A model generated the notes under the pieces. It was not told the DNA's origin, did not search any database, and saw only the letters and a list, made by a program, of their open reading frames with translations. From the NCBI RefSeq assembly GCF_009765865.1, contig NZ_LMUQ01000053.1, positions 1 through 42,931 on the forward strand: DNA of 42,931 nucleotides, in the 5' to 3' direction. This document shows, one piece after another, positions 12,496 to 29,848 of this stretch. The translations under genes were made by a program, and so were the position numbers. The stretch is from Acidisoma sp. L85. GTDB lineage: Bacteria > Pseudomonadota > Alphaproteobacteria > Acetobacterales > Acetobacteraceae. Every line of letters starts with the position of its first letter. Position 1 is the first letter of the stretch.

Positions 12496-14013
12496 TCAGC
12501 CTGGCGACCTCCTTCGAGTGACATTCCGATTCTCTTCTCCAAGAAGATCTTCTATCAGAGCAGCGGAGAGCTTGGCGTCGAGCTTGTCATTAGCGTTTCT
12601 CGGCAGTCGCTCAATGGTTCGAAATATCTCAGGAATGCAGTAACTCTCGATCTTGCCGGCCAAAGCTTTTCTCAATTGTATCTCGTCGAACTCGGCGCTT
12701 CTTGGGCACTCAATGAGGGCCACAAGGGTCTCGTGCCTCTTTACGACACAGGCGGTAGGCCAGCCGCACTCCCGTATCGCTGCGGAAACTGCAGCGAGCT
12801 CGATGCGGTACCCGCGGAATTTGACTTGGAAGTCAAGCCGCTCTCGGAAATAAAGCTTACCTTCTATTCGCTCCGCCCAATCGCCACTAAAATACGCTCG
12901 CTCAACGCACCCATCTATTTCCACGTCCCGAAAGGCTAATTTCGTCTGTTCGCTATTGTTCCAATAGCCATTTGCGAGCTGGGGGCCGGTGATGACGATC
13001 TCGCCCTCGTCGACGGTCGGGCCCCCCAGCAGATGCAACATCATGCCTGGAATCTGCTCTCCAATGGACACATTGCTTCGGCAATTTAGCGCTAGGTTTT
13101 CTGGAGTTAGCCGCACCTCAGTCATCGAAACCGTAGTCTCAGTTGGTCCATATGTGTTTCTCACGTCAGCATAAGGGCACGCGGCGAAGATAGCTCTAAC
13201 CTGATGGGCCAGTAGCGGCTCCCCGCAGAACAAGAACAAGCGGATCGACGACAGAAAGGCCGCGATGGCCTCGCCAGAAGTAATCATTAGACTCACGACG
13301 CTGGGCACCGAGATCCAAATCGTCAGCTTGAGCTGGGCAATTCTACGCGCCGGAACGAGGCGATCACTTTTTGTCTCAAAGGAGCAAAGGGTAGCGCCAG
13401 AGCATAGGGCCCCATAAATCTCAAGTACGGCTAAGTCAAACCCGATATTTGCATACTGGGAAACGCGATCCTCTGAATTCAGGCACAGAGTGGAAACGCT
13501 CCAAGCGATATAGTGATTCAAGGCCGAACGCGAAATTTCAACACCCTTAGGCGTTCCTGTGGACCCTGATGTGAAGATCACATAAGCTGTAGTTCCACAT
13601 CTTCCCCTGCCATGAAGAGGTGGCATGCTCAAGACCAAAGCCGGATCAATGTGATATCCGTGCGGTCGCAGGTGAGTCAAACTCGTGCGACACGCTTGAT
13701 CCGCGACAATCAAGTCCGGGTCGAACAGTTCGGCGATATGTAGCAGTTTCTCCGCTGGCGCCGAGACGTTAAATGGGGCGTAGGTGATACCGGCCAGCAG
13801 TGCTCCCAGCATGGCAGCATAAGCTTCCCCACACTGAGGTAAGGCGATCATCACTCGCTGGATGCGAGTTCGAATGAATAGCCCGGCGAACTGCCTGACG
13901 GCATATTCGAGTTCGCGATATGTCCAGTCACGCCGGGCGTCAGAAACGGCGGTTGCGGCTGGACGTGTCTGAGCGGACAGCAGAAAGCTGTCAACGACAT
14001 CATGAACATTCAT
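12496..14013 (-). CDS. Free-standing AMP-forming adenylation domain protein (NRPS A-domain-like)
   Basis: A 505-residue ANL-superfamily enzyme. Core motifs are visible: A3 YVIFTSGSTGTPKG (residues about 144-157), A4 GFDLAVLEIYGAL (about 191-203), A5 NTYGPTETTV (about 286-295), A7 YFSGDWAE (about 374-381), A8 GKLYFRERLDFQVKFRGYRI (about 384-404) and A10 NANDKLD (about 473-479, with the catalytic Lys). The Asp after Phe in A4 matches the residue that binds the amino group in amino-acid-activating A-domains, so an amino acid is the likeliest substrate; the side-chain pocket cannot be read with confidence. No carrier or condensation domain is fused. A separate ACP at 25025 is a possible partner. 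The ATG at 14013 fits the family start. Confidence 0.85.
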   Translation of the reverse strand: MNVHDVVDSFLLSAQTRPAATAVSDARRDWTYRELEYAVRQFAGLFIRTRIQRVMIALPQCGEAYAAMLGALLAGITYAPFNVSAPAEKLLHIAELFDPDLIVADQACRTSLTHLRPHGYHIDPALVLSMPPLHGRGRCGTTAYVIFTSGSTGTPKGVEISRSALNHYIAWSVSTLCLNSEDRVSQYANIGFDLAVLEIYGALCSGATLCSFETKSDRLVPARRIAQLKLTIWISVPSVVSLMITSGEAIAAFLSSIRLFLFCGEPLLAHQVRAIFAACPYADVRNTYGPTETTVSMTEVRLTPENLALNCRSNVSIGEQIPGMMLHLLGGPTVDEGEIVITGPQLANGYWNNSEQTKLAFRDVEIDGCVERAYFSGDWAERIEGKLYFRERLDFQVKFRGYRIELAAVSAAIRECGWPTACVVKRHETLVALIECPRSAEFDEIQLRKALAGKIESYCIPEIFRTIERLPRNANDKLDAKLSAALIEDLLGEENRNVTRRRSPG

Positions 14014-14493
14014 GTCCGAGAACCCTGAGCAATTAGCCGATGCTACGACGGAATGATAGCGTAAGGCGCAGGACGATGCAACTCATTTGCTCGTCTGTAG
14101 AATCGTCAGTCAGCGCGAATGCACGCTCCGGTTGCTTCTCGATAAAATACCTCCCTTGGCTACGTCTAGACATGCTCGGACGCCATTTACTTGCAGCTAT
14201 CAGTTGAGAACGTGGCGGCTCCATCACTTGATCGAACGGGGAAAGGTTGGCCAAATGTTTTCGAGCGCCTGAGAACTTTTGACAGCCGGGTCGGTGTAGC
14301 CAAGCCGGCACCGGTCCAACTACGGCGTCCGGGTTCAGGATGGCGTTGGCCGGCTCCGCACGGAACCTAGGAGAGGCCCATCAACACAGGTGCTTCTTCA
14401 GCGAAAGCGACGGCATACTGGGTTTGCCGTTGTCGGCTATGATCAAAAGGCATAGGATTCACACGGGCTGTCCTCTCCATTTGGAAGATCGCG
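14014..14493. other. Divergent intergenic region
   Basis: It lies between the leftward adenylation gene and the rightward WcbI gene and should hold promoters for both. Short open frames occur on both strands but none has a recognisable domain. Confidence 0.4.
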
Positions 14494-15849
14494 GTGCTTC
14501 CCATCGATTTTCTCCCTGGCGGAAATGCTAAGCGGTTCCTGCAAGATGGTTGGTCTTTTCAGGAACCCATTGGCATATGGGCCGTCGGATCAGAAAGCGC
14601 GGTTCTGTTGCCCCCTGTCATTGCGTCCGCACCTCGCCGTCTCTCGGTACAGCTCTTTCCACTCATCGCACCTCCTGAGCTCATGCAACAACGTGTTGAG
14701 CTGATCCTGAATGGAGTGCTCATCTACCAAACCGCACTGACCGCTGAGGAGAGGAATCTCACATGCGCAATTCCCGATGAACTACTTCAACCTGACGCAA
14801 CTAACAGACTTGTCATTGTGCATCCTGATGCCGCGGCGCCGCGCGACTTAAACCCTCTCAAGACCGATCCCCGCAGACTGGCAGTTTGTCTTAGGCGCAT
14901 TGAATTCGAGACGCCGGCCAAGCCAGGCACCCAGGTTGAAGTTGCCAGTGATCAGAGAAACCCGCGCGGCCCGATCGCTGTGGCGCCCCGAAACGAGCGC
15001 CGCCTCGTACTATGCAGACGGGACACGCTCTCCAGCGAAATCGCGCAGATACTTCGCTTTTTTCCTCCCTTTGAAGATGCCTTCGACTTACGCTTGATCA
15101 CCGGTACAACACCATGGTCGATAGTGCTGCAAAGCCTTTCCCCTCAAGATAGCGGACGACTTGCAGCAGTCTGGGATCAGATAGTACCCGAGGCCGTAAA
15201 TCAAGAGCCCTACCTGCGTGGAATCCTACCGCAATCTGCAACCTATATTAGATTCCCTCGGCTCTTTATCAATTGCCTTTGGCCACTTCGTGGCCACGAC
15301 CCGAGACTTGCGCTCGAGCCTCAATTTCCTAAAGGACGATATCCCTACACTGATATCGCGGCTGCCGAATTGCGTAACGAACAGCTGAATGACGACGCGC
15401 TGTATGCGCGCTATATGCAACGCTCGGCTGAACTGATGCCCGACTTGGATGTAGAGTGGGACCGCGACGTGTCCGCGTGGCGGACGCTAGACGCGCGATG
15501 CGACGTGCAGCTTTGTCCTTTTATTATCTCCCATTTTCACACGACACGGCTATTCTATGGCCCCGATCTACCCTGCGCACCGTTGTTAGCCTATCTCGTT
15601 GAACAGCTTCTTGGCGGTCTACTCACGCAAATGCAGTTTAGCCCGTCCGACGTCTACAACCAGTTCTCCGACTACATTTACGGATATCAGGGTATGTTTC
15701 TCGATCAGGCTCCGGTGCATCCCTTTGTCCTCAGGAAGTTTAATGTGCCGTGGCTTTCGACAACCTATGAGTATCGGAGGGGTCACAGTAAACGTACGTT
15801 CCGTGAACATATCATAGACTATATCCACTGGGCTCCGTGGTTCGCGTGA
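14494..15849 (+). CDS. WcbI-like protein with N-terminal beta-sandwich domain
   Basis: A 451-residue protein. Residues about 25-135 look like the jelly-roll module often attached to glycan enzymes (RVELILNGVLIYQTALT, CAIPDELLQPDATNRLVIVH, DPRRLAVCLRRIEF). Residues about 165-451 resemble WcbI polysaccharide-biosynthesis proteins (PYLRGILPQSATYIRFPRL, INCLWPLRGHDPR, HPFVLRKFNVPW). WcbI of the Burkholderia capsule binds CoA and is a putative acetyltransferase. The position of the family GNCQ-like motif reads LVLCRRDTLSSEI, so Asn-Cys-Gln is missing. The start is GTG with GGAAGA eight bases upstream. A second WcbI gene follows on the same strand after 113 bases. Confidence 0.75.
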   Translation: MLPIDFLPGGNAKRFLQDGWSFQEPIGIWAVGSESAVLLPPVIASAPRRLSVQLFPLIAPPELMQQRVELILNGVLIYQTALTAEERNLTCAIPDELLQPDATNRLVIVHPDAAAPRDLNPLKTDPRRLAVCLRRIEFETPAKPGTQVEVASDQRNPRGPIAVAPRNERRLVLCRRDTLSSEIAQILRFFPPFEDAFDLRLITGTTPWSIVLQSLSPQDSGRLAAVWDQIVPEAVNQEPYLRGILPQSATYIRFPRLFINCLWPLRGHDPRLALEPQFPKGRYPYTDIAAAELRNEQLNDDALYARYMQRSAELMPDLDVEWDRDVSAWRTLDARCDVQLCPFIISHFHTTRLFYGPDLPCAPLLAYLVEQLLGGLLTQMQFSPSDVYNQFSDYIYGYQGMFLDQAPVHPFVLRKFNVPWLSTTYEYRRGHSKRTFREHIIDYIHWAPWFA

Positions 15850-15962
15850 CTACAAGCTGACTGTGAAAAATGTGGCACGATTCGGGCCAGCGGGATTCGG
15901 CTTAACCAAGTGTAACACACGTCGTGTCCACTAGAACGAGCCACTCTAGGTAGGAAGAGAGT

Positions 15963-16865
15963 ATGATGAGTGATGAAGAGGCTTTGTCGAAGAAACAAGG
16001 CAAGCCGGTGTGGCTTATTTACGCTAACTGCCAGGCCGCTGCGATCGCCGCTCTCCTACCGCGCATCGGGCGATTGTCGGATTCGGTCGATATAAAGTAT
16101 GTCTTCATTCACTCCCTAGAAGAGCGTGGCAAGGGCTGGGACACGTATCCCGCGTCCTATATGGATGGAGTGACGGTTGTTTGGGAGCAAGTAAGTGAGG
16201 CCTTTCCGGCCGTGCGCGCTGAGTTTCATCGGCGACTTCCTGAGACTGCCCGTCGGATCAGGTTTCCGGCTTTTACGGCCGGGATGATCTGGCCTTTCGC
16301 CGCCCCTGACCCAAGACCGTCCAAACACCGTCCGTATCTATATGGTGATTCTGTTGCAGCGCGGCTCGGACTTAGCTTAGCGGGCCGTCGCTTGACGGAC
16401 GATCAAATATTCTCTGAGTACATGGCCCTTAGCTACAAGAGGATGCCGGATCTCGATCGAAGTCTTGAGCTGGAGCTCGCAGCGTGGCAGAGGCGCGATC
16501 TCGATTCCGATATTTCCGTGTCGGCCTATCTAATTGAGAATTACCGAAAGACACAGCTATTTTACGAGCGCGGGCGCATTACACAGTATCCAGTGCGCTA
16601 CCTCATAGATCGGCTGCTACAGGAAAGCCTTGACGCGAACGCCGTCAACGTCACCTCCGTTCTGGAGGACGCAGCAAGGCTACTCAAGTACCATCAGGGT
16701 TCTGACAACATCAGTCAGCCGATCCATCCGTTTGTAGCCGATAAACTGAAGTTGGAGTGGTTTGATCCAGAAGCTGTCTACAGATGGTTCATGCACGACT
16801 GGACGTTTAGAGACTGGATTGTACGATGCGTACGGCTTGCACCGTATGTCGGCGGCAATTTCTAA
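15963..16865 (+). CDS. WcbI family polysaccharide biosynthesis putative acyltransferase
   Basis: A 300-residue protein starting after AGGAAGAGAGT. It shows the family N-terminal motif as VWLIYANCQAAAIAALL (Asn-Cys-Gln retained), then RFPAFTAGMIWPFAAPDPRP, GDSVAARLGLSLAG and IHPFVADKLKLEW. The pattern is shared with the preceding gene, so the two are paralogues. By family knowledge it acts in the cytoplasm on a nucleotide sugar or nascent capsule unit using an acyl-CoA. The donor and acceptor here are unknown. It has no signal peptide or membrane segment. Confidence 0.82.
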   Translation: MMSDEEALSKKQGKPVWLIYANCQAAAIAALLPRIGRLSDSVDIKYVFIHSLEERGKGWDTYPASYMDGVTVVWEQVSEAFPAVRAEFHRRLPETARRIRFPAFTAGMIWPFAAPDPRPSKHRPYLYGDSVAARLGLSLAGRRLTDDQIFSEYMALSYKRMPDLDRSLELELAAWQRRDLDSDISVSAYLIENYRKTQLFYERGRITQYPVRYLIDRLLQESLDANAVNVTSVLEDAARLLKYHQGSDNISQPIHPFVADKLKLEWFDPEAVYRWFMHDWTFRDWIVRCVRLAPYVGGNF

Positions 16866-16902
16866 CGTTGCGCGGAATATCACGCCACCAATATCAGTCT
16901 CT

Positions 16903-17877
16903 TCAAGAAACTGGGTCGCTTGTTAGAAGCCTTCGATACTGATCGTAGAACCTGTCAATTACAGGCCTTTCCTTCTCAAGTTCGTTAGCTCCTATGTGGT
17001 CGTTCAAGCAGAAAAATGCCGGCCGATCGAGGATAAGCCTGTCCAATCGTAGTTTCCAGTCTACGTGTCCGTCTCCAAGAGGAACGAACCTGTATTCGTC
17101 AGCAGTAAGGAATTTTACAGAACCGGACGCGGAACTACTGGCAGCGGTTTCTCGATCAGCTTCCTCGCTGCGCTCCTTGTAGAGGAAATAATGTGCATAA
17201 AGAAACGCAAATAACATGTTCGTCGTCGCACGAAAGCGCGACGACGAAGTGGCGAAGAGTTGTGGTCCGAAATTTAGCCAAAGTTCGAAGCATGATGACC
17301 GTCTGCATCCAAACGGCGTATGAGTTAGAAAATGCCTTTGCTCAACCTCCAGTCTTTCCGAAAGAAGTGCGTCGGTTCCGATAAGTGCTTGCGCATAAAG
17401 ATCGTCTTCATCCGCACTGTCCGGCACATAGTGACGTTCCATTCTAAAAACTGGTCGCCCTTCTTGGGAGAAGAAGTCTCCTTTTGAAAGGGGTCGACCA
17501 ATAAAGAAGTCGTCGTTGAACATGATAAACTGCTCTGACAGCCCATCAATAAAACAGACATTACTTTCTATAGAATTGGAGTTAAACGTTGGAAGATGGT
17601 GTCGAGAGCAATAAAACTGCTCGTGGTAAATGACCTCGACACCGGGCACGCCTAGTACGGCTTCCGGTGGCGACTGGCCATTGGTGACAATAAATATCTT
17701 GCGCACCCATGGAAGAAATTTGCGAATCGCAGGAACTGAAAAGCTGAGCTCCTCGTTGTCTCTGTATCGACTCGCCAATAGATTACTCCGCGGCCCGGCC
17801 GCCTCTTGCCATTTTGCGAGAGAGCGCGCTAGATCGTCGTCAAGCTTCACCCACAGAACGACAGCATCAATAATCAT
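16903..17877 (-). CDS. Stealth family sugar-phosphate transferase
   Basis: A 324-residue protein with the four conserved Stealth regions. CR1 is IIDAVVLWVKLDDD (residues 2-15), CR2 is YRDNEELSFSVPAIRKFLPW followed by VRKIFIVTNGQ (about 38-68), CR3 is FNSNSIESNVCFIDGLSEQF followed by IMFNDDFFIGRP (about 98-130), and CR4 is near FCLNDHIGANE (about 290). Stealth proteins transfer hexose-1-phosphate in bacterial capsule synthesis and are related to GlcNAc-1-phosphotransferase. CR1 normally reads WVDGxDP; here it is WVKLDDD, an odd change. It reads convergently to the WcbI pair. Confidence 0.88.
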   Translation of the reverse strand: MIIDAVVLWVKLDDDLARSLAKWQEAAGPRSNLLASRYRDNEELSFSVPAIRKFLPWVRKIFIVTNGQSPPEAVLGVPGVEVIYHEQFYCSRHHLPTFNSNSIESNVCFIDGLSEQFIMFNDDFFIGRPLSKGDFFSQEGRPVFRMERHYVPDSADEDDLYAQALIGTDALLSERLEVEQRHFLTHTPFGCRRSSCFELWLNFGPQLFATSSSRFRATTNMLFAFLYAHYFLYKERSEEADRETAASSSASGSVKFLTADEYRFVPLGDGHVDWKLRLDRLILDRPAFFCLNDHIGANELEKERPVIDRFYDQYRRLLTSDPVS

Positions 17878-17962
17878 TGCCGGATCCTGTTGACTTGGGA
17901 TAGACCCAGGTAGTTAGCACTTACATCTGAAATTGGCATAAGTCGTACATCATCTGTTCGCG

Positions 17963-18463
17963 CTAGCTCAGGGAAGTCTCAGCTGACGACTTCGACCTTA
18001 GCTCGATCTCAGCTAAATTGCGAAGAAGGACCGACAGTCGAATGATCGCTTCGTTTACGTCCAAGATCGCTGACATATCGGGTGCGGGGGCTGGCTCAGC
18101 TTCAATCAAGGTAGGGCTTTCTAGCTCCGCCAGGACCTGCCGGTGCAACTGAGTCATTCGCAAGGTCCGCATGCAACTATTATATAATTCGGGGGACCGA
18201 TCCAGGAGCTCAGTGATAAGGCCCAGGTCGGCGGCGAGGGCAGTCGGGAACTCACCTTGAGATAGAATTTGCGTAACAAGCCTTGCACTATGGGAGAGCT
18301 CGGAACAGGACCCTATGATGGCGTCGGCCGCATTGAGCGGAATTTGTAAGATCTTGGCAAGCGTCTTCGCCAACAACATGAACGCAAGATCATAGGCGCT
18401 CACGTGGGACGCCAACTCACAGTCTAGACCCATGCCGCCTTGAGGTGTTTTGGTCCGGACCAA
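17963..18463 (-). CDS. Hypothetical helical protein of the polysaccharide block
   Basis: A 166-residue protein I do not recognise. It is predicted mostly helical, with no signal peptide or long hydrophobic segment. It is rich in Leu, Ala, Ser and Glu, with an acidic Pro-rich stretch near residue 125 (EAEPAPAPDMSAILD). It reads on the same strand as the Stealth gene, 85 bases upstream of it, and the two may be co-transcribed. A 15-base perfect palindrome lies about 35 bases upstream of the start. Homologues were not recalled, so it could be lineage-specific. Confidence 0.5.
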   Translation of the reverse strand: MVRTKTPQGGMGLDCELASHVSAYDLAFMLLAKTLAKILQIPLNAADAIIGSCSELSHSARLVTQILSQGEFPTALAADLGLITELLDRSPELYNSCMRTLRMTQLHRQVLAELESPTLIEAEPAPAPDMSAILDVNEAIIRLSVLLRNLAEIELRSKSSAETSLS

Positions 18464-18497
18464 GTGCCGACTCCAACTAATTCGTCAAAACCGTAGA

Positions 18498-18512
18498 ATG
18501 TAGATTCTACAT
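18498..18512. promoter_or_regulatory. 15-bp palindrome upstream of the hypothetical gene
   Basis: ATGTAGATTCTACAT is a perfect palindrome about a central T, embedded in GTAGAATGTAGATTCTAC. It lies about 35 bases upstream of the leftward gene starting at 18463, a position suited to an operator. Function is inferred from position only. Confidence 0.35.
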
Positions 18513-18625
18513 GAGATTACCTATGGATGCCATACAGTTGCGCGTGCTTGGGCCTGGGAGGCTCAAGAGGCGTCACGCCATACCTCTTGGCGAATGCCCT
18601 GTTTAAGCCGAACAAGAGCCGGTTT

Positions 18626-18688
18626 GATAGTTTGAATGAATTCTCGAGGTGAACGCACGCAGACACCGCCATGCATGTGGGCTTCGTA
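18626..18688 (-). pseudogene. IS3-family OrfB C-terminal remnant
   Basis: The minus strand reads YEAHMHGGVCVRSPREFIQ. It aligns with the end of OrfB in the IS3 element of this window (YNEHHPHSGLRMRSPREFIR), and the DNA of the two places is also visibly similar. It is a short scar of an IS2-group element. The longer frame around it (to 19057) has no recognisable function and is probably not a gene. Confidence 0.6.
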
Positions 18689-18932
18689 ACTAGCGCCTTC
18701 TTCCGCTGCAAGCAGGACAACTCGGAAGTGGGTGGAGAGCCAGAAGTCCGGCTTGGATGTTCGATCGTGATCTGCCTTCTCTGTCCCGATAGTCAACCTT
18801 GTGGCACTGAACGCCCTGTCGGCCCACTCGATCAGCTGTCGGAGGGCCGCCGCGCCTTCGAGGATCGAGCTCTTGGACCAGCGCGCTGCGCTGCCGATCG
18901 CGGCTTCCACCAGTATAAACGCCACTGGCCTA
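18689..18932. other. IS-derived or decayed DNA downstream of the GT1 gene
   Basis: No supported gene. It sits between the IS3 OrfB scar and the stop of the glycosyltransferase gene, whose last residues seem to read into this junk. Confidence 0.35.
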
Positions 18933-20210
18933 CTAACCAGATGGTCGCCGCCGAGCTTGAGGCGTGTCGGAACCGACCACCCCTGTACGCCGCCGAGGTG
19001 GAGAAACAGGTTTATCGCCCACAATTCTATGAGACACTGTCCTCGTGGTCCCGTCACTCCCCCCTCTGCTAACTAGACTACCCCCTTTCTGGAGATCATG
19101 CGTTGTGCGGATCACGTCTAGTCGTTTAAGCATTCTCAAGCCGGTAGGCCGGTCGTTCGCGACCTTCTCGACGGTCCGCCGCCCCAAACGGCGCAGCTGA
19201 CGGGCCCAGATCGGATCATCTATAGCTTTTAGCATTAGATAAAGAGCGTGGTCTAGATCCGGCTCCGCCCAATGTTGTCCTTGCCACTGCGGATACTGGC
19301 CTTCTTCTACCTTTGTAAGAGAATAACGCACGCAGAGTGAGTTCTCGTCCGACATATAGTCGCAGTTGCCAGACCATCCCGTTGCCAAAGCCAGGCGGTC
19401 GGCCATCATTGCCTCAGCCATACCTCTGCCAAATCCCTCGGATCTATGAAGGGATGCGAAGCAGTCGGTGGATTGTATGAGGCTTCGTGCCGCAAAACTC
19501 TCTAGACTCTCGGCTAGAACAATCGTTCCACCAGGAACTTCGTCAGAGAGCTCGCGAGCTAGGTTCTTAGCATCCCCATCTCCCAATCTCGCCTTTATTA
19601 TCAGCTGTATGTCGTCAAATGGCCGAAGCGCCGAAAGCCTCTTAAACAGCTCTACTACTGCCCAAGGGTTTTTCCGATGCACATAAGAACCCATATCGAA
19701 AAGGTTCAATACAGTATAAGATGATTCTCTAATACCAAAGAAGCGCCTAGGAAGATAAGTCTTGAAGTCGGATTCGACCGACTGTCCTACGTGATGTGCT
19801 ACTAATCCTGAAGCTTCCAGCGACTGTTGGACGAAGGATGAGATGGCCCAAATCTCGTGGAAACGAGCCAGACCATCGCGCCACACGGCCGGATAAGTCG
19901 GAAGCTCCCAAGCCGGCACGATGATATTGTAACCCTCCGAAAACGACTCGCCCTTATCTGCCAGGTGCGACAGCACCCGCTCAACCTCGTCACCATTTAT
20001 ATGAAAGATCCTGATGTCACTCCCGGACAACGTCAGGGTCTCTGTACCGGCGAGAAGGGCCCTCATGTCGGGATCAGTCCTAGCAGAGTAACGGAAGATG
20101 TCGTAGCCCAGGGCCGGCACGCCGACAGCCCTTAGCGCACGTAGCCCCGCACGGACCTGTTCGCCCATTCCGCTTGACGAAAAGGGATGACCAGCGACCA
20201 CCACATTCAT
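18933..20210 (-). CDS. GT1/GT4-type (GT-B fold) glycosyltransferase
   Basis: A 425-residue protein starting MNVVVAGHPFSSSGMGEQVR, the N-terminal Rossmann half with a Gly-rich loop. The C-terminal half carries YVHRKNPWAVVELFKRL, IQLIIKARLG and the nucleotide-sugar motif SLHRSEGFGRGMAEAMMADR (E-x7-E type). Such enzymes add sugars from NDP-sugar donors to glycans in the cytoplasm. The ATG at 20210 was chosen because homology begins there and GGGAG lies upstream; an in-frame extension to 20321 has no homology. The last 40 or so residues (Arg/Pro/Gly-rich, after TTHDLQKGG) look unlike the family and may come from adjoining IS debris. Confidence 0.85.
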   Translation of the reverse strand: MNVVVAGHPFSSSGMGEQVRAGLRALRAVGVPALGYDIFRYSARTDPDMRALLAGTETLTLSGSDIRIFHINGDEVERVLSHLADKGESFSEGYNIIVPAWELPTYPAVWRDGLARFHEIWAISSFVQQSLEASGLVAHHVGQSVESDFKTYLPRRFFGIRESSYTVLNLFDMGSYVHRKNPWAVVELFKRLSALRPFDDIQLIIKARLGDGDAKNLARELSDEVPGGTIVLAESLESFAARSLIQSTDCFASLHRSEGFGRGMAEAMMADRLALATGWSGNCDYMSDENSLCVRYSLTKVEEGQYPQWQGQHWAEPDLDHALYLMLKAIDDPIWARQLRRLGRRTVEKVANDRPTGLRMLKRLDVIRTTHDLQKGGSLVSRGGSDGTTRTVSHRIVGDKPVSPPRRRTGVVGSDTPQARRRPSG

Positions 20211-20361
20211 AATGTCAACGCTCCCGAAAAAGGGTACGACCGCGTTAAGCAAGAGGTTGAGAAGATGACAGCCAACGGCCGAGCTAGTCTGCGAAACTCG
20301 ACGGTGGCTGGATCGAACCACAAAACCCTAGGTCCAGGCTCAATCGATCTAGAACAATCCC

Positions 20362-21555: not shown

Positions 21556-22077
21556 ATGAAAAAGATGTCACTGCCGAGTTCCGAAACGCCAGTGTCGACA
21601 GGGCCAGTCGTAGCAAACGGCTTTTTTCCGATCCCCGAAGACTTTTCTGATCACGTTGGCGTGTCTCTCGACGAGTTCAGAGGGTCGCGAAAAGTGCTGG
21701 TTAGCCTCGACGTCTTGAGATCACTTATCGGGTTAGCTGCAGCCGGCATTGGCTTTGACGAAGTCACCTACAGAGAGCGTAACCAAGATCTGCGCGAGGC
21801 GCTAGCGCGTGGTGCCATTTCCGATCTTCGCACACACTTCATTACGGAGGGCTACTTCGAGAAGCGACCGGGATCACGAGCTCAGGCGTATCCGGTCGAC
21901 GAGACTTGGTATTTGGAGCACTATCCTGATGTGTTGGAGGGCATAAAAGCTGGTCTAGTCGATACGCCAACTCAGCACTATCTGGTCACAGGTCGCAGAG
22001 AAGGCCGATTGCCCCGAGGTGATATCTCAGGTGCCGTACGGCACCTGATCTCGGCGTTGAAGTCGACGGAAGGATAG
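21556..22077 (+). CDS. Small protein with two YPDV-type repeats found in glycosyltransferases
   Basis: A 173-residue protein with no catalytic motif. It contains two copies of a module. The first is degenerate (FDEVTYRERNQDLREALARG, then HFITEGYFEKRPG, about residues 67-110). The second is canonical (DETWYLEHYPDVLEGIKAG, then HYLVTGRREGRLP, about residues 115-155). The same module occurs as four copies at the N-terminus of the next gene, a GT2-WbsX fusion, and in many large surface-glycan glycosyltransferases. A scaffold, chain-binding or regulatory role is an inference. It is 78 bases upstream of that gene on the same strand, so co-transcription is likely. Confidence 0.65.
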   Translation: MKKMSLPSSETPVSTGPVVANGFFPIPEDFSDHVGVSLDEFRGSRKVLVSLDVLRSLIGLAAAGIGFDEVTYRERNQDLREALARGAISDLRTHFITEGYFEKRPGSRAQAYPVDETWYLEHYPDVLEGIKAGLVDTPTQHYLVTGRREGRLPRGDISGAVRHLISALKSTEG

Positions 22078-22155
22078 TTCCCAATGCGCGATCGACTACG
22101 GCCGATGTAGTGGGTCTGACTGAGGGGTGGTTGCGTTTACCCTTCATGTATTGGG

Positions 22156-24990
22156 ATGTACGTAGTGGCCATTAAAACAAAAGGAAGGTCTCGACCAATA
22201 GATCTGCCAGGACAGACTGGTGCTTCTACTCAAGGGACTCCGAACTCGGATTTCAGCATACGCGCCCTGCTGGATCTCCCGTTTGTGGATGATCGAGTGC
22301 TTTTTCGCAATTTTGGCCTACGGCGCCATCAGCATTCTGAGCTTGGAGCCGTGTATATGCGGATGCCCGCCCGTAATAGGGCCACGCTGTCACCATACTT
22401 CGACGTTCAGTGGTACATGAGCCAAGTTCCCGGGCTCGCGGAGTCGGACGTCGACCCCTTTTGGCATTTCTGTACCCAAGGGGTCTATCGCAAGCTCTCG
22501 CCGCACCCCCTTGTCTCACTCACTCACATGCTTCGTCATCATCCCGATCTTCTCTCGCCTAATGGTGCGCTCGAGCGCCTCGTTAAAGGCTTGGAAGTAG
22601 ACTGGATCCCGCCCTCACCGTATTTCGATATCAGCTATTACTTAGAAAAGCGACCTAGCGCGAGATTGGCTCCCTATGGGCCACTTCGTGACTTCGTCGA
22701 ACAAGAAAGCAAGGCTGTCATTGTTCCCAACGAGTACTTTGACGCGGACTTTTATATTGAACGATATCGAGACGTACCCGGCAACATTCGCGATGCTTAC
22801 CTACACTTCGTCGTCGTCGGCGATCGACAGGCGAGATTCCCTAGTCAGATATTCGATTCCGACTACTATCTAAGGAACAATCCGGATGTCGCTGAGGCCA
22901 GATTTCCCCCTCTCATGCACTTCATTGGATGGGGCCGCGCGGAAGGTAGGCGCCCCGTAGGAAGGCGCCGTTTTGATGTACCGGTAGCAGCTGCTCCTCG
23001 GAACGAGTTCGCGAGTTACGAACCAGACTTTAAATTAGGCCGCGAACGCTACCTTGAAGCGGAGGCGGTTCTCACCAAACGCAAGCAGGCCCTACTTGCT
23101 ACTGTTGCTGAGCGCGACATTAGGCCCGTCATAATCTCCGATTTACAGGACGCCCTCGCGGCCCTCTCATTCGAATACCCGCAAGATCCAAAAGTATCGA
23201 TCCTTATACCGTGCTACAACAATCTTAAGGTCACTTTGGAGTGCCTCCTGTCGATCGCCTATTCGAAGTCGACTTGCAGTTTCGAGATCGTAGTTGCGGA
23301 CGACTGCTCTCCCGATCTGGAGGTTCAGCAGCTTCGTTCCGTATCGGGACTCGTCTATATTCGTCAACCGAAGACTCTGAACTTCCTAAGGAACTGCAAC
23401 GCAGCGTTTGGGTCGCTTCGCGGGGAGTATGTCCTACTTCTCAACAACGATGCACAGATATGTGAGGGCGCTCTGGACGCGCTCGTGATGGCTCTGGACA
23501 GTAATCCCGCCGTCGCCGCCGTCGGGCCGAAGATACTCTTCCCGAACGGTCGGCTTCAAGAGGCGGGTTGCATAGTTAACAGAGACGCAAGTACGACCAT
23601 GATAGGGTTGTCGGAAGACCCCGCTCAACCGTGCTACAACTACGATCGTGACGTTGACTACGTGTCGGGGGCGGCCCTTATGTTCCGTCGCTCCCTGGCG
23701 AGGGACGATCTATTTGAAGAGCGTCTCGCCCCAGCCTATTGCGAAGACATTGATCTCTGTCTCCATCTTTCATCGAAAGGATACAGGATACGGTACATCG
23801 CGAGTGCGACGATCGTCCATCATCTTAGCATGTCATTCTCGGATTATGGAAAGAAAGTTTCCATGATCCGGACGAACCAACAGACACTAATTGAGCTATG
23901 GGGAGAACGACTGGCGCGCATGAACGAGGTCCGGGCGATTGCTTTTTATCTTCCGCAGTTTCATCCAATCCCGGAGAATGATCGTTGGTGGGGAGCTGGT
24001 TTCACCGAATGGACGAACGTTACGAAGGCGCAGCCTAGCTATCAAGGCCATTACCAACCCCATCTTCCGTCGGACCTCGGATTCTACGACCTTCGGCTTG
24101 CGGATGCATTGCGTAAGCAGGCGCATCTGCTGCAGCGTTATGGGCTCGGTGGCTTCTGCATGTATTACTACAACTTTGGTGGCAAGGCCTTACTGGACAC
24201 ACCACTGAGAGTGATTCTAGACAATCCCGATATTGAGTTCCCGTTCTGCTTATGCTGGGCAAACGAGAATTGGAGTCGCAGATGGGACGGCGGCGTTCGC
24301 GGAATGCTAATCGAGCAGCAATACGATGACGCAACCATCGACTCTGTCGCGAGCAATGTCTCGCGAGTGGTCATCGACCCTCGGTATATCCGCGTCGATG
24401 GAAGAGCGCTGCTTTTGATCTACCGCCCGCTGCTGATTCCGAAGCTCGACAAGGTGCTAGAAAAGATAAGAACAGCTGCACGAACCACTGGAGGCGGCGA
24501 ACTCCAAATCGTTCTGGTCGAGGGTATGGAGTTCGTCGAGGCGTCAGTCGACCCAATACAGCTGGGATTCGACGCGTCAGTAGAGTTCCCTCCTCAAGGG
24601 ATCGGCGTGGCTATGAAGGACAAAAGGGAAATCTACAAAAGTGACTGGAATGGCACGCGTTATGATTATCTAGAGACCATGGCTAAGGCGATCCTGACGC
24701 GACGGGCGAGCTGGCCAAGCTATACCTCCGTATTTCCGTCCTGGGATAACACTGCGCGCCAACCGCTTTTGGGTACTTCCTTTGATCTTTGTTCGCCGGA
24801 GGCATTTCAATTTTACTGCGAAAAGAAGATTGAGCAGTGTAAAGAACGCTTTACTGGTGATAACCGTCTAATGTTTATTAACGCCTGGAATGAGTGGGCG
24901 GAGGGCGCCCACCTTGAACCGGATCGAGTCTTCGGACATAGTTGGTTGGAGGCGCTGCACAATGCATTGCTTTCTAGCGGTTCTCTGTAA
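22156..24990 (+). CDS. Bifunctional GT2 glycosyltransferase / WbsX-like (GH99-type) protein with N-terminal repeats
   Basis: A 944-residue protein. Residues about 70-275 hold four repeats of the form F-D-x-x-x-Y-h-x-x-x-x-D/S, with loops ending HF-x-x-x-G (for example FDSDYYLRNNPDVAEARFPP, then HFIGWGRAEGRRP). Residues about 344-570 are a GT2 domain: KVSILIPCYNNLKVTLECLL, VVADDCSPD, LLLNNDAQI (DxD-like, near residue 428) and YCEDIDLCLHL. Residues about 588-944 match the WbsX/GH99-like family: IAFYLPQFHPIPENDRWWG, FTEWTNVTKAQP, CMYYYNFGGK, WANENWSRRWDG and NAWNEWAEGAHLEPD. WbsX domains are found in O-antigen and capsule loci and resemble endo-mannosidases. One polypeptide could therefore both build and trim or transfer a chain. 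The enzyme lacks membrane segments and starts at ATG without a strong ribosome-binding site. Confidence 0.88.
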   Translation: MYVVAIKTKGRSRPIDLPGQTGASTQGTPNSDFSIRALLDLPFVDDRVLFRNFGLRRHQHSELGAVYMRMPARNRATLSPYFDVQWYMSQVPGLAESDVDPFWHFCTQGVYRKLSPHPLVSLTHMLRHHPDLLSPNGALERLVKGLEVDWIPPSPYFDISYYLEKRPSARLAPYGPLRDFVEQESKAVIVPNEYFDADFYIERYRDVPGNIRDAYLHFVVVGDRQARFPSQIFDSDYYLRNNPDVAEARFPPLMHFIGWGRAEGRRPVGRRRFDVPVAAAPRNEFASYEPDFKLGRERYLEAEAVLTKRKQALLATVAERDIRPVIISDLQDALAALSFEYPQDPKVSILIPCYNNLKVTLECLLSIAYSKSTCSFEIVVADDCSPDLEVQQLRSVSGLVYIRQPKTLNFLRNCNAAFGSLRGEYVLLLNNDAQICEGALDALVMALDSNPAVAAVGPKILFPNGRLQEAGCIVNRDASTTMIGLSEDPAQPCYNYDRDVDYVSGAALMFRRSLARDDLFEERLAPAYCEDIDLCLHLSSKGYRIRYIASATIVHHLSMSFSDYGKKVSMIRTNQQTLIELWGERLARMNEVRAIAFYLPQFHPIPENDRWWGAGFTEWTNVTKAQPSYQGHYQPHLPSDLGFYDLRLADALRKQAHLLQRYGLGGFCMYYYNFGGKALLDTPLRVILDNPDIEFPFCLCWANENWSRRWDGGVRGMLIEQQYDDATIDSVASNVSRVVIDPRYIRVDGRALLLIYRPLLIPKLDKVLEKIRTAARTTGGGELQIVLVEGMEFVEASVDPIQLGFDASVEFPPQGIGVAMKDKREIYKSDWNGTRYDYLETMAKAILTRRASWPSYTSVFPSWDNTARQPLLGTSFDLCSPEAFQFYCEKKIEQCKERFTGDNRLMFINAWNEWAEGAHLEPDRVFGHSWLEALHNALLSSGSL

Positions 24991-25024
24991 CTTGAGTCGC
25001 GCAACTTCGCAATGGCATAGCGTC

Positions 25025-25282
25025 TTAAGCCGGTCTTCCATCACCAGTCTTCGTGGTAAGTACATTCACTAGGTCGCCCACATTGTTGAGGCCGTCGATT
25101 TCACGAGTCTCAAGCTTGACACCGAAACGCTGCTCGACCGCCATTATAATGTCGATCTGTCGGAAACTATCCCAGCCGGGTACGTCCTCAGCCGTCATAT
25201 CCGGTCTCAACACAAGGTCGTCTCGAAGAAACACGTCGTTGAAGACTTCGGTGAGTACATCATAAAGTTCCGACTCAGTCAT
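25025..25282 (-). CDS. Acyl carrier protein
   Basis: An 85-residue acidic four-helix protein with the phosphopantetheine site VPGWDSFRQIDIIMAVEQ (Ser at about residue 39) and the usual helix 3 pattern RFGVKLETREI. It begins four bases after the stop of the fkbH-type gene, with its ribosome-binding site inside the end of that gene, so the two are translationally linked. In FkbH pathways the ACP carries the glyceryl unit made from a glycolytic phosphoglycerate. It could also accept a substrate from the free-standing adenylation protein at 12496, though that link is inference. Confidence 0.9.
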   Translation of the reverse strand: MTESELYDVLTEVFNDVFLRDDLVLRPDMTAEDVPGWDSFRQIDIIMAVEQRFGVKLETREIDGLNNVGDLVNVLTTKTGDGRPA

Positions 25283-25286
25283 GCGG

Positions 25287-27182
25287 CTAGATCTCCCTAG
25301 TCTTTATCAACGGGTTAGCCAGTACGGATACCCCGAGGTCCAGCACGCCTATGCAGCATCCGTCATCATAGGTGGCCACAATGTCGAAGCCTAGTCTAGG
25401 ATAAAGGTCTTCGACCATTTTGTTTTTACTTGTCGGTCTGAAATCGCCGACCAGCCGCTTAGCGCCTAGGGCTCGGGCATGGTCAACGATGAGCTTTAGC
25501 GTGGATTGCTCCACGCCTCGACCAAGTACGCGGCAGCTCATAAGCCATGTGTCGATTAGTACGTCTTTATCGCCCTGCAGACGACCTATAATGATGGCGA
25601 TGATGCCGTTGTCACCGAAGCGGTCAATGAGACGTAGCTGCAGTCCAAATGCGCTACTATCTTCCATTACTGCCATTACGTCCTCCCTTGTGTATCGGAG
25701 GGTGGTCAGGTTAAACTGATTCGTCTTGTTGATGAGTTGTACTACACGCTCCAGTCCAATTCTATCAAAATGTTTCCATCGAAGCTCCATCTCAAGACTC
25801 TGAAGATAAGAATCGAGATCCGTGGACGTGTCCGCCAATAAACTACGAACCGTGTTGGCTTGATACTGCCCAGCGCGCGATCGATCTTCGTCTGTTACCG
25901 CTAAGCTCTCGAAATAGCCAGCGTCCGCCAAGGTTTGCGGAACGAGAGCCGGGTCACTGGGGACCTCTGGCACAGCTACCATTGGAAGTTCCTGGCGGAC
26001 GAGCGCGCGTTCGAATGGGCTGTCGTCTACGAAAACAAGCGATTCTAGCCCAATATTGAGCTCTCGTGCCACATGTCGAAGGTTCGACGCCTTGTCGTTC
26101 CAGTTAACACAAAAGCAGGCCACGTCTTCTCTTCGCAACAACATTTCCGGATGTTTTTCGAATGGGATCGCGGCGGTCATCTCGTCGTTTTTCGAGCACA
26201 CTGCCAAAATGACGCCGCGTCTCTTAAGGCTCTGAGCATAGGCTTGCACCGCGGCGAATCCTTCTCCTAACGGACTACCTTGGCCAACAACGATCCCATC
26301 AAGCCCATCTTCTCCAATGGTGCCGCCCCAAATCGTGTCATCCAGATCGAGTACTAAACACTTAGCAGACCGTCCTTGCTGCGCCGCAATAAGCCGCGCA
26401 ACCAAATCGCCGTATAGTGGGGCCGCCGGCGGTGCCACGTCTTGCTTGGAACGGTGCCACAGTGCTGGGTCATGCCAAGCAAGAACTCCATCCTTGTGGA
26501 CGTGTGCATCTAGCGCCATCAGGTCGACTCCCATCTCATCGGCTTGCAAACGAAGCGCGAAATTGAGCTTCTCGACCATGTAGCGGCGCGAGTCGGGCAG
26601 ACGATGTTCGTTACTTCCCAATAGTGTGGGTAGGGAGTTGAGGACAGTTTGCTGCAATATAGTGCATTGGAAGCTTCGGCGCGCGAGTGCCCAGCAGTGC
26701 CGGATCCGATCGAGGGCGCTATTAAGTGTCGCCTCGGCATCTTGGCTACTAAGCGCGCGATCCACGTTTCGAGCTACGTGATGGGCGTCAAACGAAAACA
26801 GAATGGTCGTCGGATTGAACTGGTGAAGCCCTGAGTCAGGATCCATCAGCTCCTGAAGGTACTGGCCGTAAGCGGTTTCATAAGTCGTGATCCAGATACT
26901 GCGACGTAGCGCTGCTACACGAATAGCAGCATGCAGGTGCGAAAGTGTCGAGGAACCTAGTATCGCCAATCTAACTGGCCGAGTCCCGATCTCTCCAAGG
27001 TGCTCGACGTCGCACACCCGACGCACAATGTCATCCAATGCATTGGTTGACAAAAAGTCGAGGCGCGTATTGGCAAGCGCGATTGCAGCCTTCAGCGGAT
27101 CGCTAGCGGTGGCGAGCATCTTGATCCCCCGTCGAACCTCGCTCTCAATCGGCAACCAGTGAAGTTGCGGCGCGTTCGCCAC
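25287..27182 (-). CDS. FkbH-like HAD-superfamily protein with C-terminal GNAT-like domain
   Basis: A 631-residue protein. Residues about 65-250 form the N-terminal domain usual in FkbH relatives (VRLAILGSSTLSHL). Residues about 275-440 are the HAD IIIC phosphatase domain, with motif I LVLDLDDTIWGGTIGEDG, motif II CSKN, Lys in NWNDKASNLR and motif III LVFVDDSPFERALVR. Residues about 480-620 are a GNAT-like domain (LGRGVEQSTLKLIVDHA, GDFRPTSKNKMVEDLYPRLG). FkbH proteins dephosphorylate 1,3-bisphosphoglycerate and load the glyceryl group on an ACP. Homologues also occur in polysaccharide loci. The start is GTG with AAGGAGAG eight bases upstream. Confidence 0.9.
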   Translation of the reverse strand: MANAPQLHWLPIESEVRRGIKMLATASDPLKAAIALANTRLDFLSTNALDDIVRRVCDVEHLGEIGTRPVRLAILGSSTLSHLHAAIRVAALRRSIWITTYETAYGQYLQELMDPDSGLHQFNPTTILFSFDAHHVARNVDRALSSQDAEATLNSALDRIRHCWALARRSFQCTILQQTVLNSLPTLLGSNEHRLPDSRRYMVEKLNFALRLQADEMGVDLMALDAHVHKDGVLAWHDPALWHRSKQDVAPPAAPLYGDLVARLIAAQQGRSAKCLVLDLDDTIWGGTIGEDGLDGIVVGQGSPLGEGFAAVQAYAQSLKRRGVILAVCSKNDEMTAAIPFEKHPEMLLRREDVACFCVNWNDKASNLRHVARELNIGLESLVFVDDSPFERALVRQELPMVAVPEVPSDPALVPQTLADAGYFESLAVTDEDRSRAGQYQANTVRSLLADTSTDLDSYLQSLEMELRWKHFDRIGLERVVQLINKTNQFNLTTLRYTREDVMAVMEDSSAFGLQLRLIDRFGDNGIIAIIIGRLQGDKDVLIDTWLMSCRVLGRGVEQSTLKLIVDHARALGAKRLVGDFRPTSKNKMVEDLYPRLGFDIVATYDDGCCIGVLDLGVSVLANPLIKTREI

Positions 27183-27886: not shown

Positions 27887-28324
27887 ATGACGGATACTAC
27901 AATATGCGGCGGTTCTCACGCGTCAAACTTCACAGGCGGCCACGGACACGAGGTAGGCCACAACCCGTTTAGCAGCCCATTTATAGGTGGGTACGGCGCG
28001 ATGACGGTTAGCGGAGGAGAACATGGGGCAACGCTGTTTGGCGGCGAGCACAATTCTCCGGCTTACCAAGGTGCATTTGGAAATAACACGCTTACTGGCG
28101 GCTGGAGCTCCACTAGGCTAGTGCACGGCAGCACGGGAACAAGCGGAGACCTGTACGGCTTCCTTTCGAATCAGAGCCACGGTCTCAGCGAGCTGTTACC
28201 CTCCCACCATGCCAGTGATGTAAAACTGACCGTTGCGATTAATGATTTCGTTGGCAGCACAGACATGATTAAGCTTCACGACGGAACGACAATCGCTGTC
28301 TCGGATTTGGATCATCACCACTAA
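27887..28324 (+). CDS. Glycine/histidine-rich RTX-like secreted protein
   Basis: A 145-residue protein with no N-terminal signal. It contains glycine doublets at roughly regular spacing (ICGGSHASNFTGGHGHEVG, FIGGYGAMTVSGGEHGATLF, GGEHNSPAY, TLTGGWSS), similar in pattern to RTX nonapeptides. The usual calcium-binding Asp is mostly replaced by His, Gly or Asn. The C-terminus (VAINDFVGSTDMIKLHDGTT, IAVSDLDHHH) resembles the tails of RTX-type proteins exported by type I secretion. It is preceded by GAGGTGAGAAG. No type I transporter is seen in the window. It may bind metal or glycan outside the cell, an inference. Confidence 0.7.
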   Translation: MTDTTICGGSHASNFTGGHGHEVGHNPFSSPFIGGYGAMTVSGGEHGATLFGGEHNSPAYQGAFGNNTLTGGWSSTRLVHGSTGTSGDLYGFLSNQSHGLSELLPSHHASDVKLTVAINDFVGSTDMIKLHDGTTIAVSDLDHHH

Positions 28325-28442: not shown

Positions 28443-28528
28443 ACATAGCCGACTTTCCAGCTCGTCATTTACCTGCGGGCCTATGTCTTCTTGAATCCAG
28501 AACTTGAAATGGCACGCAGAGAAAGTCG

Positions 28529-29848
28529 ATGTCCTGGTTAGTAAGAGTGCGGCTCCTAGCACTAGTTGCCTTCCTCCCCATCGTAACGATCGGTGCCACA
28601 GAATCCCAGGGTAGTTCTACTAGCAAGATCTCCGACCTGAGTCGGTCGGAGCCAGGAGAAGATTATGTTAGACCTGAGGAGTTTAAGCGCTCGTCGGACC
28701 CCGATGATACACACTCTTTATTAGAAGCAGGCCGCTTCGGTTTTGTTAGACTGACCGCCGGGCGGACCTATGTAACTTGTTCAACCATACGTTTATATCA
28801 TCTGATTGCCGACGGACCGGGAGCCATATTGCGCGCCTGCCGGAACTGGGGAGTTGGCTACCCTGGATCAAGCCGGGCAATGGTTAGAAATCCTAATTGG
28901 AATGCCACAGGTAGAATAGATCATGGGTTGATCGTGGAGAATGTCACCCTTGATGCTCGAGCGATTCAGGAACCTGGATCATTCCATTCAATCGCCTTTA
29001 GAATGGCTCGACGTATCCGAATCAACAACGTGACATGTTTAGGGGGCGGTGACTGCACGGCCTTCGAGGGGGATGTGGACACAGCTATTGGAAACAGCCG
29101 CGCAGTGGGGATGGCCAATGCCTGTTGGGACCACTGGGAATCGTCAAGTTCCGTCCGTGTTATCAATACGAGCTGCGATACAAACTTATACGGCATTTTG
29201 TTTACAGGTACGAATACAGCGGAGAATGATCCCGGTGTCGCGAAAGGGGGTGTCTTTTCCTACAATCGACTCCTAGTGCGAGGGCATGCCGGAGCCGCAT
29301 TGTGGCTGAATGGACTTGGCCCCTTTGGATCCGGCTCATCCAGTGTTGTCGTTGCCCACAACGATATTAGTGCGTGTCATGAGGGTAACGTCGGGATCAA
29401 GATCTCCGGATCGAGTTCAGAAATAGCCATCCTCAACAATCTAATTAGTGGAAAAACCTTTGGCCAAGGAATCGTGGTCAGCAATGACTCTGGTGGGCGG
29501 CCATCGAACGTGGTGCTAGTCGCGAATGTCGTGGATGGTTTAATTGCCAAACCAATTGACGTCGCTCCAATCTCTGTAGGTGGTGATAACGTGATCGTAT
29601 CGGGAAATTTCGTCTATGGCTCCTTTCGATCCCCCGCGTATTGGCTTCATGGGAATCATCAGAAGGCACGACAGAATTCTTTCAACGGCAACTATGGCGC
29701 TAACATATATGAGACCTCGGGAGCAAAAAACCTAACAATCAACTTAGATAAACTTGGCCGGCCAGCAGATCCTCCAATTCACGAGGGACAGGTTAATATC
29801 GGTTCAGCAGCTCGTTCAAACACTGGAAGGCCCGATAATTGCCTTTGA
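28529..29848 (+). CDS. Exported right-handed parallel beta-helix protein
   Basis: A 439-residue protein with a signal peptide (Arg-containing start, hydrophobic LLALVAFLPIVTI, cleavage near Ala-Thr-Glu at about 23-25). The body has repeated short strands typical of pectate-lyase-like beta-helices: IDHGLIVENVTLDA, RIRINNVTC, SVRVINTSC, SVVVAHNDIS, SEIAILNNLISG, NVVLVANVVDG and NVIVSGNFVYG. Such folds are found in polysaccharide lyases, epimerases and hydrolases of exopolysaccharide loci. No specific catalytic set could be assigned. Its place at the end of the glycan block suggests that it acts on the exported polymer in the periplasm or outside. Confidence 0.82.
   Translation: MSWLVRVRLLALVAFLPIVTIGATESQGSSTSKISDLSRSEPGEDYVRPEEFKRSSDPDDTHSLLEAGRFGFVRLTAGRTYVTCSTIRLYHLIADGPGAILRACRNWGVGYPGSSRAMVRNPNWNATGRIDHGLIVENVTLDARAIQEPGSFHSIAFRMARRIRINNVTCLGGGDCTAFEGDVDTAIGNSRAVGMANACWDHWESSSSVRVINTSCDTNLYGILFTGTNTAENDPGVAKGGVFSYNRLLVRGHAGAALWLNGLGPFGSGSSSVVVAHNDISACHEGNVGIKISGSSSEIAILNNLISGKTFGQGIVVSNDSGGRPSNVVLVANVVDGLIAKPIDVAPISVGGDNVIVSGNFVYGSFRSPAYWLHGNHQKARQNSFNGNYGANIYETSGAKNLTINLDKLGRPADPPIHEGQVNIGSAARSNTGRPDNCL

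What the first reader, a model, noticed from the sequence alone, without database searches (positions are those of the whole stretch)
12496..29848. Polysaccharide locus combining an adenylation domain, ACP, FkbH-GNAT, two WcbI proteins, Stealth and a GT2-WbsX fusion
The block holds enzymes that build chains (GT1, GT2-WbsX), transfer sugar phosphate (Stealth) and handle acyl groups (WcbI pair, FkbH-GNAT plus ACP, free-standing adenylation domain). FkbH with ACP is known to make glyceryl-ACP, adenylation domains activate carboxylic acids, and WcbI proteins bind CoA. Together they suggest a surface glycan carrying a glyceryl, aminoacyl or related substituent delivered through an ACP. I do not recall this exact combination as a described pathway. 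No transport (Wzx, Wzy, ABC) genes are in the block, so export must be encoded elsewhere.
Basis: partly seen in the sequence, partly recalled or inferred. Interest (0 to 1): 0.75.

Follow-up and report, generated by a model that had tools for sequence, protein, structure and literature searches.

The report
Carrier-protein-fed glycan acylation gene cluster
A plasmid of an environmental bacterium carries a sugar-polymer gene cluster in which a small carrier protein, loaded with an acid by a partner enzyme, most likely hands that acid to a pair of WcbI proteins for attachment to the polymer, which would suggest what partner the puzzling WcbI proteins work with.

Summary
In detail: adenylation domain (A), two WcbI proteins, Stealth, GT1, GT2-WbsX, ACP and FkbH, plus a methyltransferase, lie at 12496-27182 of a plasmid-type contig. 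It is a real module: relative G107 carries seven of these and a 173-aa ORF (44-62% identity) as one block in another order, without A and Stealth. New is a link between WcbI and carrier proteins. Of 13 ACP genes found within 4 kb of 71 WcbI genes, 10 lie within 150 bases of one (null mean 0.66). In a second draw across the phylum, 4 of 8 PxHP-type WcbI genes and 0 of 10 PxYP-type have an adjacent ACP. Loaders beside these ACPs, where seen, are FkbH, an A domain, or both. The WcbI pair recurs as eight tandem pairs; in 8 of 8 the first protein lacks the CoA-binding cysteine and the second keeps it. Best reading: FkbH charges the ACP, probably with glycerate, and the WcbI pair passes the acyl group to the glycan. 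Against: the closest FkbH relatives mostly have neither WcbI nor MBOAT, and most WcbI loci show no ACP. This is comparative genomics only.

The parts
12496..14013 (-). stand-alone adenylation (AMP-binding) protein, 505 aa; active-site half closest to DltA among solved structures
   Evidence: relatives 44-48% identical in Mesorhizobium plasmids and four same-family genomes, each read one with an ACP gene beside it
14494..15849 (+). WcbI1: N-terminal jelly-roll-like domain plus WcbI domain without the Cys14 equivalent
15963..16865 (+). WcbI2: WcbI protein with the NCQ motif (Cys23 = Cys14 of solved WcbI)
16903..17877 (-). Stealth-type phosphotransferase (CR2, CR3 over cut-off, CR4 weak, CR1 not matched)
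17963..18463 (-). 166-aa ORF without Pfam match; may or may not be a gene
18933..20321 (-). GT1-type glycosyltransferase
   Evidence: 59% identical relative in L094
20362..21252 (-). SAM-dependent methyltransferase (Methyltransf_11)
   Evidence: 46% identical relative in L094
21556..22077 (+). 173-aa ORF related to the N-terminus of the GT2-WbsX protein (34% over 89 aa)
   Evidence: relatives beside FkbH in L094 and L041
22156..24990 (+). GT2-WbsX fusion, 944 aa
   Evidence: 55% identical relative in L094
25025..25282 (-). acyl carrier protein with DSF motif; groups with FkbH-linked ACPs
25287..27182 (-). FkbH protein (FkbH_N, HAD-IIIC, C-terminal FkbH region), 631 aa

Best explanation
A plasmid-borne module that decorates a glycan with a carrier-protein-bound acid. 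FkbH takes a three-carbon acid, probably glycerate from 1,3-bisphosphoglycerate, and loads it as a thioester on the neighbouring ACP. The ACP docks on a heterodimer of WcbI1 (Cys-less, with a carbohydrate-binding-like domain that may hold the glycan) and WcbI2 (with the catalytic cysteine), which moves the acyl group to a sugar of the chain built by GT1 and GT2-WbsX; the methyltransferase may methylate the acid or the sugar. The DltA-like adenylation protein is a second loader (amino acid, perhaps D-alanine) for the same or another ACP. Shown: gene identities, conserved gene content, linkage of WcbI with ACP and loaders, loss and retention of the cysteine within pairs. Inferred: acid identity, docking, heterodimer, direction of transfer, roles of A and Stealth.
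For: G107 contig C284 holds GT2-WbsX, MT, GT1, WcbI1, WcbI2, the 173-aa ORF, FkbH and ACP together, 44-62% identical, all on one strand. FkbH, ACP and WcbI are consecutive in Niveispirillum plasmid NZ_CP025615, in G005 (FkbH-ACP-WcbI1-WcbI2) and in a named Acetobacteraceae MAG, L172 (WcbI-WcbI-FkbH-ACP). WcbI and FkbH lie within 12 kb in 6 of the 20 family genomes that have both (8 gene pairs, 0.27 expected by uniform placement). ACP next to WcbI: 10 of 13 nearby ACPs within 150 bases, null mean 0.66, 0 of 20,000 draws. Second draw: 4 of 8 PxHP WcbI genes with an adjacent ACP, 0 of 10 PxYP, P 0.023. A-ACP-WcbI in G102 and G638, an A-ACP fusion then WcbI and FkbH in G146, WcbI1-WcbI2-A-ACP in G145. 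Eight pairs: first gene Cys-less 8 of 8, second NCQ 8 of 8, identity matrices correlated 0.93 (4 of 40,320 permutations as high). WcbI profile matches solved WcbI at E 1.4e-14. WcbI binds CoA but showed no activity, and its authors proposed an unknown partner (PMC4104973, passages).
Against: In the window WcbI and ACP are 8.2 kb apart with other genes between. The 10 same-family FkbH loci closest to the window (L041-L050) have neither WcbI nor MBOAT in the stretches held, and 13 of the 15 closest named loci likewise (the two sets overlap at least at Acidisphaera), so FkbH-ACP of this clade usually serves something else. 14 of 20 family genomes with both WcbI and FkbH do not have them within 12 kb. 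Most of the 62 WcbI contig loci show no ACP within 4 kb, some cut by contig ends. One pair (G107 C82) has no ACP in the 57.8 kb read of its 63.4-kb contig. G171 has MBOAT beside FkbH as well as a WcbI 4.4 kb away. WcbI2 of the window has Arg where solved WcbI has His201. Confidence was lowered from 0.6 to 0.5.
Confidence: 0.5

Rival explanations
1. Two separate decorations: WcbI proteins O-acetylate the glycan from acetyl-CoA, as proposed for Burkholderia WcbI, while FkbH-ACP feeds an unidentified transferase. Neighbourhood reflects only that both are glycan genes.
For: Solved WcbI binds CoA (PMC4104973); most WcbI loci lack an ACP nearby; the closest FkbH relatives lack WcbI.
Against: ACP genes near WcbI sit directly beside it far more than uniform placement gives, repeated in a second draw; three loci have FkbH, ACP and WcbI consecutive or with WcbI pairs consecutive.
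Confidence: 0.27
2. The A domain, not FkbH, supplies WcbI: an aminoacyl (D-alanyl-like) group is loaded by A on an ACP and moved by the WcbI pair; FkbH-ACP serves another step.
For: A is divergent from the WcbI pair in the window; A-ACP-WcbI or ACP-WcbI-A in G102, G638, G533, G588 and WcbI1-WcbI2-A-ACP in G145; A pocket half closest to DltA.
Against: No ACP beside the window A gene; the only window ACP groups with FkbH-linked ACPs; G107, G005 and L172 pairs have FkbH but no A domain detected in the stretches held.
Confidence: 0.15
3. An accidental pile-up of glycan genes on a mobile plasmid, with no joint pathway.
For: Plasmid replication and mobilisation genes and transposase/resolvase remnants flank the block; strands alternate; A and Stealth are not kept in G107.
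Against: Seven of the genes plus a small ORF recur together at 44-62% identity in another order.
Confidence: 0.08

Closest known systems
Dlt system (DltA ligase, DltC carrier, DltB MBOAT)
   Same: an adenylating loader and a carrier protein bring an acyl group to a cell-surface polymer (PMC3783018, passages)
   Different: no DltB or DltD found; a FkbH loader and soluble WcbI proteins instead; A scores below the DltA equivalog cut-offs
FkbH-ACP glyceryl modules of polyketide pathways (e.g. Mad7/Mad8 of tetromadurin)
   Same: FkbH protein with a stand-alone ACP, giving glyceryl-ACP (PMC7489565, passages)
   Different: no polyketide synthase or FabH-like enzyme among the scanned window proteins; glycan genes instead
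FkbH-ACP-MBOAT loci of Proteobacteria and Acidobacteria
   Same: FkbH and ACP adjacent; 49 of 80 named loci hold an MBOAT gene (recount)
   Different: window, L094, L054, L003, L113 and L172 show WcbI and no MBOAT in the stretches examined
WcbI of the Burkholderia capsule locus (4bqn, 4bqo)
   Same: same family by profile and fold
   Different: window has a pair, one Cys-less; PxHP motif where 4bqn reads SLYP; FkbH and ACP in the locus

Membership tests
FkbH family | TIGR01686 above cut-off | tested here: met
   306.2 bits against 146.65
FkbH family | HAD motif DxD and conserved residues | tested here: met
   D279, D281, C550 among invariant columns of 10 homologues; that these are catalytic is recalled
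FkbH family | makes glyceryl-ACP | not testable with these tools
   needs mass spectrometry
WcbI family | PF18588 above cut-off | tested here: met
   35.7 and 53.2 bits against 29.2
WcbI family | homology to solved WcbI | tested here: met
   profile of WcbI2 and 11 relatives hits 4bqn, E 1.4e-14; WcbI2 alone gave no match; WcbI1 model (pLDDT 74) best matches 4bqo/4bqn, E about 1e-8
WcbI family | CoA-binding cysteine (Cys14) | tested here: inconclusive
   present in WcbI2, absent in WcbI1
DltA | NCBIfam DltA equivalog cut-off | tested here: not met
   256.8 against 559.85 (TIGR01734), 268.9 against 476 (NF003417)
DltA | DltA-like substrate pocket sequence | tested here: met
   residues 184-418 region: five best solved matches are DltA, FLFCGE and NTYGPTE shared; full length is closer to NRPS domains
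Dlt operon | DltB (MBOAT), DltC and DltD beside DltA | tested here: not met
   no MBOAT match in the window; ACP is 11 kb away; DltD: no Pfam match among the 30 scanned proteins
Stealth | CR1 to CR4 | tested here: inconclusive
   CR2 and CR3 over cut-off, CR4 below it, CR1 not matched
FkbH-ACP-MBOAT module | MBOAT acyltransferase in the locus | tested here: not met
   no MBOAT match in the window

The most novel reading that the evidence does not exclude
PxHP-type WcbI proteins are a soluble class of acyl-carrier-protein-dependent glycan acyltransferase, interchangeable in loci with MBOAT enzymes and fed by FkbH or adenylation loaders; in the window type the enzyme is a heterodimer of a catalytic WcbI2 and a cysteine-less, sugar-binding WcbI1, so the long-sought WcbI partner is the ACP plus, in these pairs, a dead paralogue.
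Probability: 0.38. Interest if true: 0.78.

Novelty: new variant of a known kind. Interest (0 to 1): 0.6.

Why it matters
WcbI is a structure without a shown activity: its authors found CoA bound, no transfer, no acceptor site, and proposed a missing partner (PMC4104973, passages). If ACP is the donor and a Cys-less paralogue the acceptor-presenting partner, the open question becomes a direct in-vitro test with proteins from harmless environmental bacteria. It would also give a second, soluble route for carrier-protein-dependent glycan acylation besides MBOAT systems such as Dlt.

Tried and rejected
Near-identity search of the block in plasmids: no match. First genome-contig scan with the single FkbH protein found nothing; the second with alignment A3 gave 579 relatives, of which the best 80 were kept. 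Single-sequence PDB search with WcbI2 gave only chance hits. A first greedy gene caller chose wrong strands in G+C-rich loci; later counts used six-frame HMM or tblastn hits. An idea that the Cys-less state occurs only in pairs was rejected: Cys-less WcbI genes outside the eight pairs exist (G123 C281, C132, C34; G187 C51, C416; G037; G171 C139; G047; G162), and tandem WcbI genes with cysteine in both or all exist (G187 C165, G105 C1). An idea that G324 is a second Niveispirillum-type case was dropped: its contig length equals NZ_CP025615. One search was a badly framed literature search and is not used. Dropped rows: one sub-cut-off WcbI place (G498) from the 71; one of 71 had no ORF; 14 of 70 genes with neither H nor Y/F in the motif column and 3 phylum genes without a clear motif were left out of the Fisher tests, including two Cys-less pair members with adjacent ACPs (G107 C185, G181).
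Full report
What is there. The window is contig C74 of a 6.38-Mb, 85-contig genome. It carries RepA_C, a ParA-type ATPase, a MobA/MobL relaxase-helicase and an integrase on the right, and transposase and resolvase-type helix-turn-helix remnants on the left of the block, so it is most likely a plasmid or part of one. RepA is about 60% identical to those of Acidiphilium and Azospirillum plasmids. G+C of the block is 0.51-0.56 in most 2-kb steps, against 0.57-0.70 outside.

The module is real. In genome G107, contig C284 (locus L094), relatives of GT2-WbsX (55%), methyltransferase (46%), GT1 (59%), WcbI1 (44%), WcbI2 (62%), the 173-aa ORF (56%), FkbH (61%) and ACP (58%) lie together on one strand, with one further 470-aa gene without a Pfam match. 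The order differs from the window, so the set has been kept through rearrangement. The adenylation gene, Stealth and the 166-aa ORF are absent from that stretch.

FkbH and ACP. The two genes are 5 bases apart. In the best 80 of 579 named FkbH relatives, 75 stretches hold an ACP, 74 of them within 300 bases of FkbH on the same strand; 49 hold an MBOAT gene, 1 holds WcbI (L172), none holds both, and 30 hold neither. The window ACP groups with ACPs next to FkbH in relatives in a FastTree tree whose support values I did not print. [quoted passage not shown] The same product here is inferred.

WcbI and carrier proteins. WcbI was found in 40 of 150 genomes of the family and 7 of 385 of the class, own genome included in both. 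I took 71 places in 45 genomes (62 contig loci) and searched their surroundings. Thirteen ACP genes lie within 4 kb; 10 are within 150 bases of a WcbI gene, 9 on the same strand; a null that places each ACP uniformly in the same surroundings gives 0.66 on average and never reached 10 in 20,000 draws. G005 is scored as 833 bases because its first WcbI has no Pfam hit; it is in fact FkbH-ACP-WcbI1-WcbI2. The ACP profile was built from nine ACPs that include the window's and Niveispirillum's, the latter being one of the ten. Most WcbI loci have no ACP in view, some because the contig ends. ACP-linked genes fall in several branches of the WcbI tree, all in the part with the PxHP motif apart from the Cys-less pair members reading PxNP. 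This split was seen after the fact (8 of 37 against 0 of 19, P 0.041), so I drew 398 genomes of the phylum: 4 of 8 PxHP genes and 0 of 10 PxYP genes have an adjacent ACP, P 0.023; together 12 of 45 against 0 of 29, P 0.0023. Own genome and G338 were removed from the second draw, and its motif was read by a simple pattern. Genes are treated as independent though some are related.

Loaders. Beside these ACPs are FkbH (Niveispirillum, G005, L172), an adenylation domain (G102 A-ACP-WcbI; G638 A-ACP-WcbI; G533 and G588 ACP-WcbI-A; G145 WcbI1-WcbI2-A-ACP), or both (G146: an A-ACP fusion, WcbI, then FkbH). For others (G181, G107 C110, G107 C185, G123 C24, G139, G022, G190) I saw no loader in the stretch held. 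WcbI and FkbH lie within 12 kb in 6 of the 20 family genomes with both (8 gene pairs against 0.27 expected by uniform placement); glycan genes cluster anyway, so this expectation is too low. One of the six (G171) has an MBOAT beside FkbH.

The pair. Eight tandem WcbI pairs of the window type were found: window; G107 C284, C82 and C185; G181; G005; G145; L172. In 8 of 8 the first protein lacks cysteine at the Cys14 position and in 8 of 8 the second has NCQ. Identity matrices of the two partners correlate at 0.93; 4 of 40,320 relabelings are as high, as co-inheritance would give. Six of the eight first proteins (window, three in G107, G181, G145) carry the same extra N-terminal domain; G005 lacks it and L172 has a long N-terminal extension that looks like TPR repeats by eye. 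The AlphaFold model of window WcbI1 (mean pLDDT 74, pTM 0.57, six sequences) matches solved WcbI best (E about 1e-8), and its N-terminal part matches jelly-roll domains such as CBM36 and part of BcsB. An ACP is in the locus of 7 of the 8 pairs; for G107 C82 none was found in 57.8 of 63.4 kb. Pairs with cysteine in both members and single Cys-less genes exist elsewhere, so this is a feature of this pair type, not of all WcbI tandems.

The adenylation protein. Its active-site half is closest to DltA among solved structures, but the whole protein scores below DltA cut-offs and nearest to NRPS domains at full length. Four same-family relatives (of 5 in 150 genomes at E 1e-50, the fifth being the window) and the two Mesorhizobium records I read have an ACP gene beside it, followed by a GNAT gene in Mesorhizobium. 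The window copy has none, next to a truncated mobile-element border, so its carrier is either the FkbH ACP or elsewhere; the genome has seven PF00550 places, one beside an MBOAT gene on C44.

Results against. The closest FkbH relatives mostly lack both WcbI and MBOAT: 10 of 10 same-family stretches L041-L050 and 13 of the 15 best named loci (overlapping sets). So WcbI is one of several partners of this FkbH type at most, and I lowered confidence from 0.6 to 0.5. In the window the WcbI pair and ACP are 8.2 kb apart. Window WcbI2, its G107 C284 relative and G005 have Arg at the His201 position.

Novelty. Searches of the held open-access library for WcbI with acyl carrier protein, WcbI alone, FkbH with glycan terms and FkbH chemistry listed no paper that reports this link, judging from listings; a FkbH-domain gene in a flagellar-glycan region of Campylobacter jejuni is mentioned in PMC7099621 (passage). 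Subscription papers are mostly not held.

Noticed in passing
L048, L178, L179, L223 and L003 (beside FkbH-ACP): A MaoC-plus-short-chain-dehydrogenase fusion sits in or near FkbH-ACP loci (10 of 80 named loci; Pfam on L003), suggesting that the ACP-bound acid is processed further in some lineages.
   Followed up: partly
window 14494-14920 and L094, L114, L096, L115: The jelly-roll-like N-terminal domain of WcbI1 recurs in other proteins of glycan loci; a single-linkage cluster holding it spans 17 of 30 loci, though such clusters may chain unrelated proteins.
   Followed up: partly
window 21556-22077: A 173-aa ORF of the same repeat type as the GT2-WbsX N-terminus; relatives stand beside FkbH in L041, L094 and L166.
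   Followed up: no
window 27887-28324 and 28529-29848: A Gly/His-rich 145-aa ORF without Pfam match and a weakly matched right-handed beta-helix protein next to the block, not found in the G107 block.
   Followed up: no
G000 C57:209560-210384 (L158): A second, sub-cut-off FkbH-like region in a 963-aa ORF elsewhere in the same genome.
   Followed up: no
L157 9403-11291 (G000 C44): An ACP-MBOAT gene pair elsewhere in the same genome, a possible second carrier-dependent acylation system.
   Followed up: partly
G053 C98:14112-15599: A relative of the adenylation gene with one in-frame TGA; described only.
   Followed up: no
L178 (Mycobacterium sp. 1245111.1 contig): An FkbH-ACP-MaoC set 56% identical to the window type in a record labelled Mycobacterium; transfer or contamination.
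   Followed up: no
window 34130-35569 and 38269-41403: DUF6880 protein and a MobA/MobL relaxase-helicase, consistent with a mobilisable plasmid.
   Followed up: no
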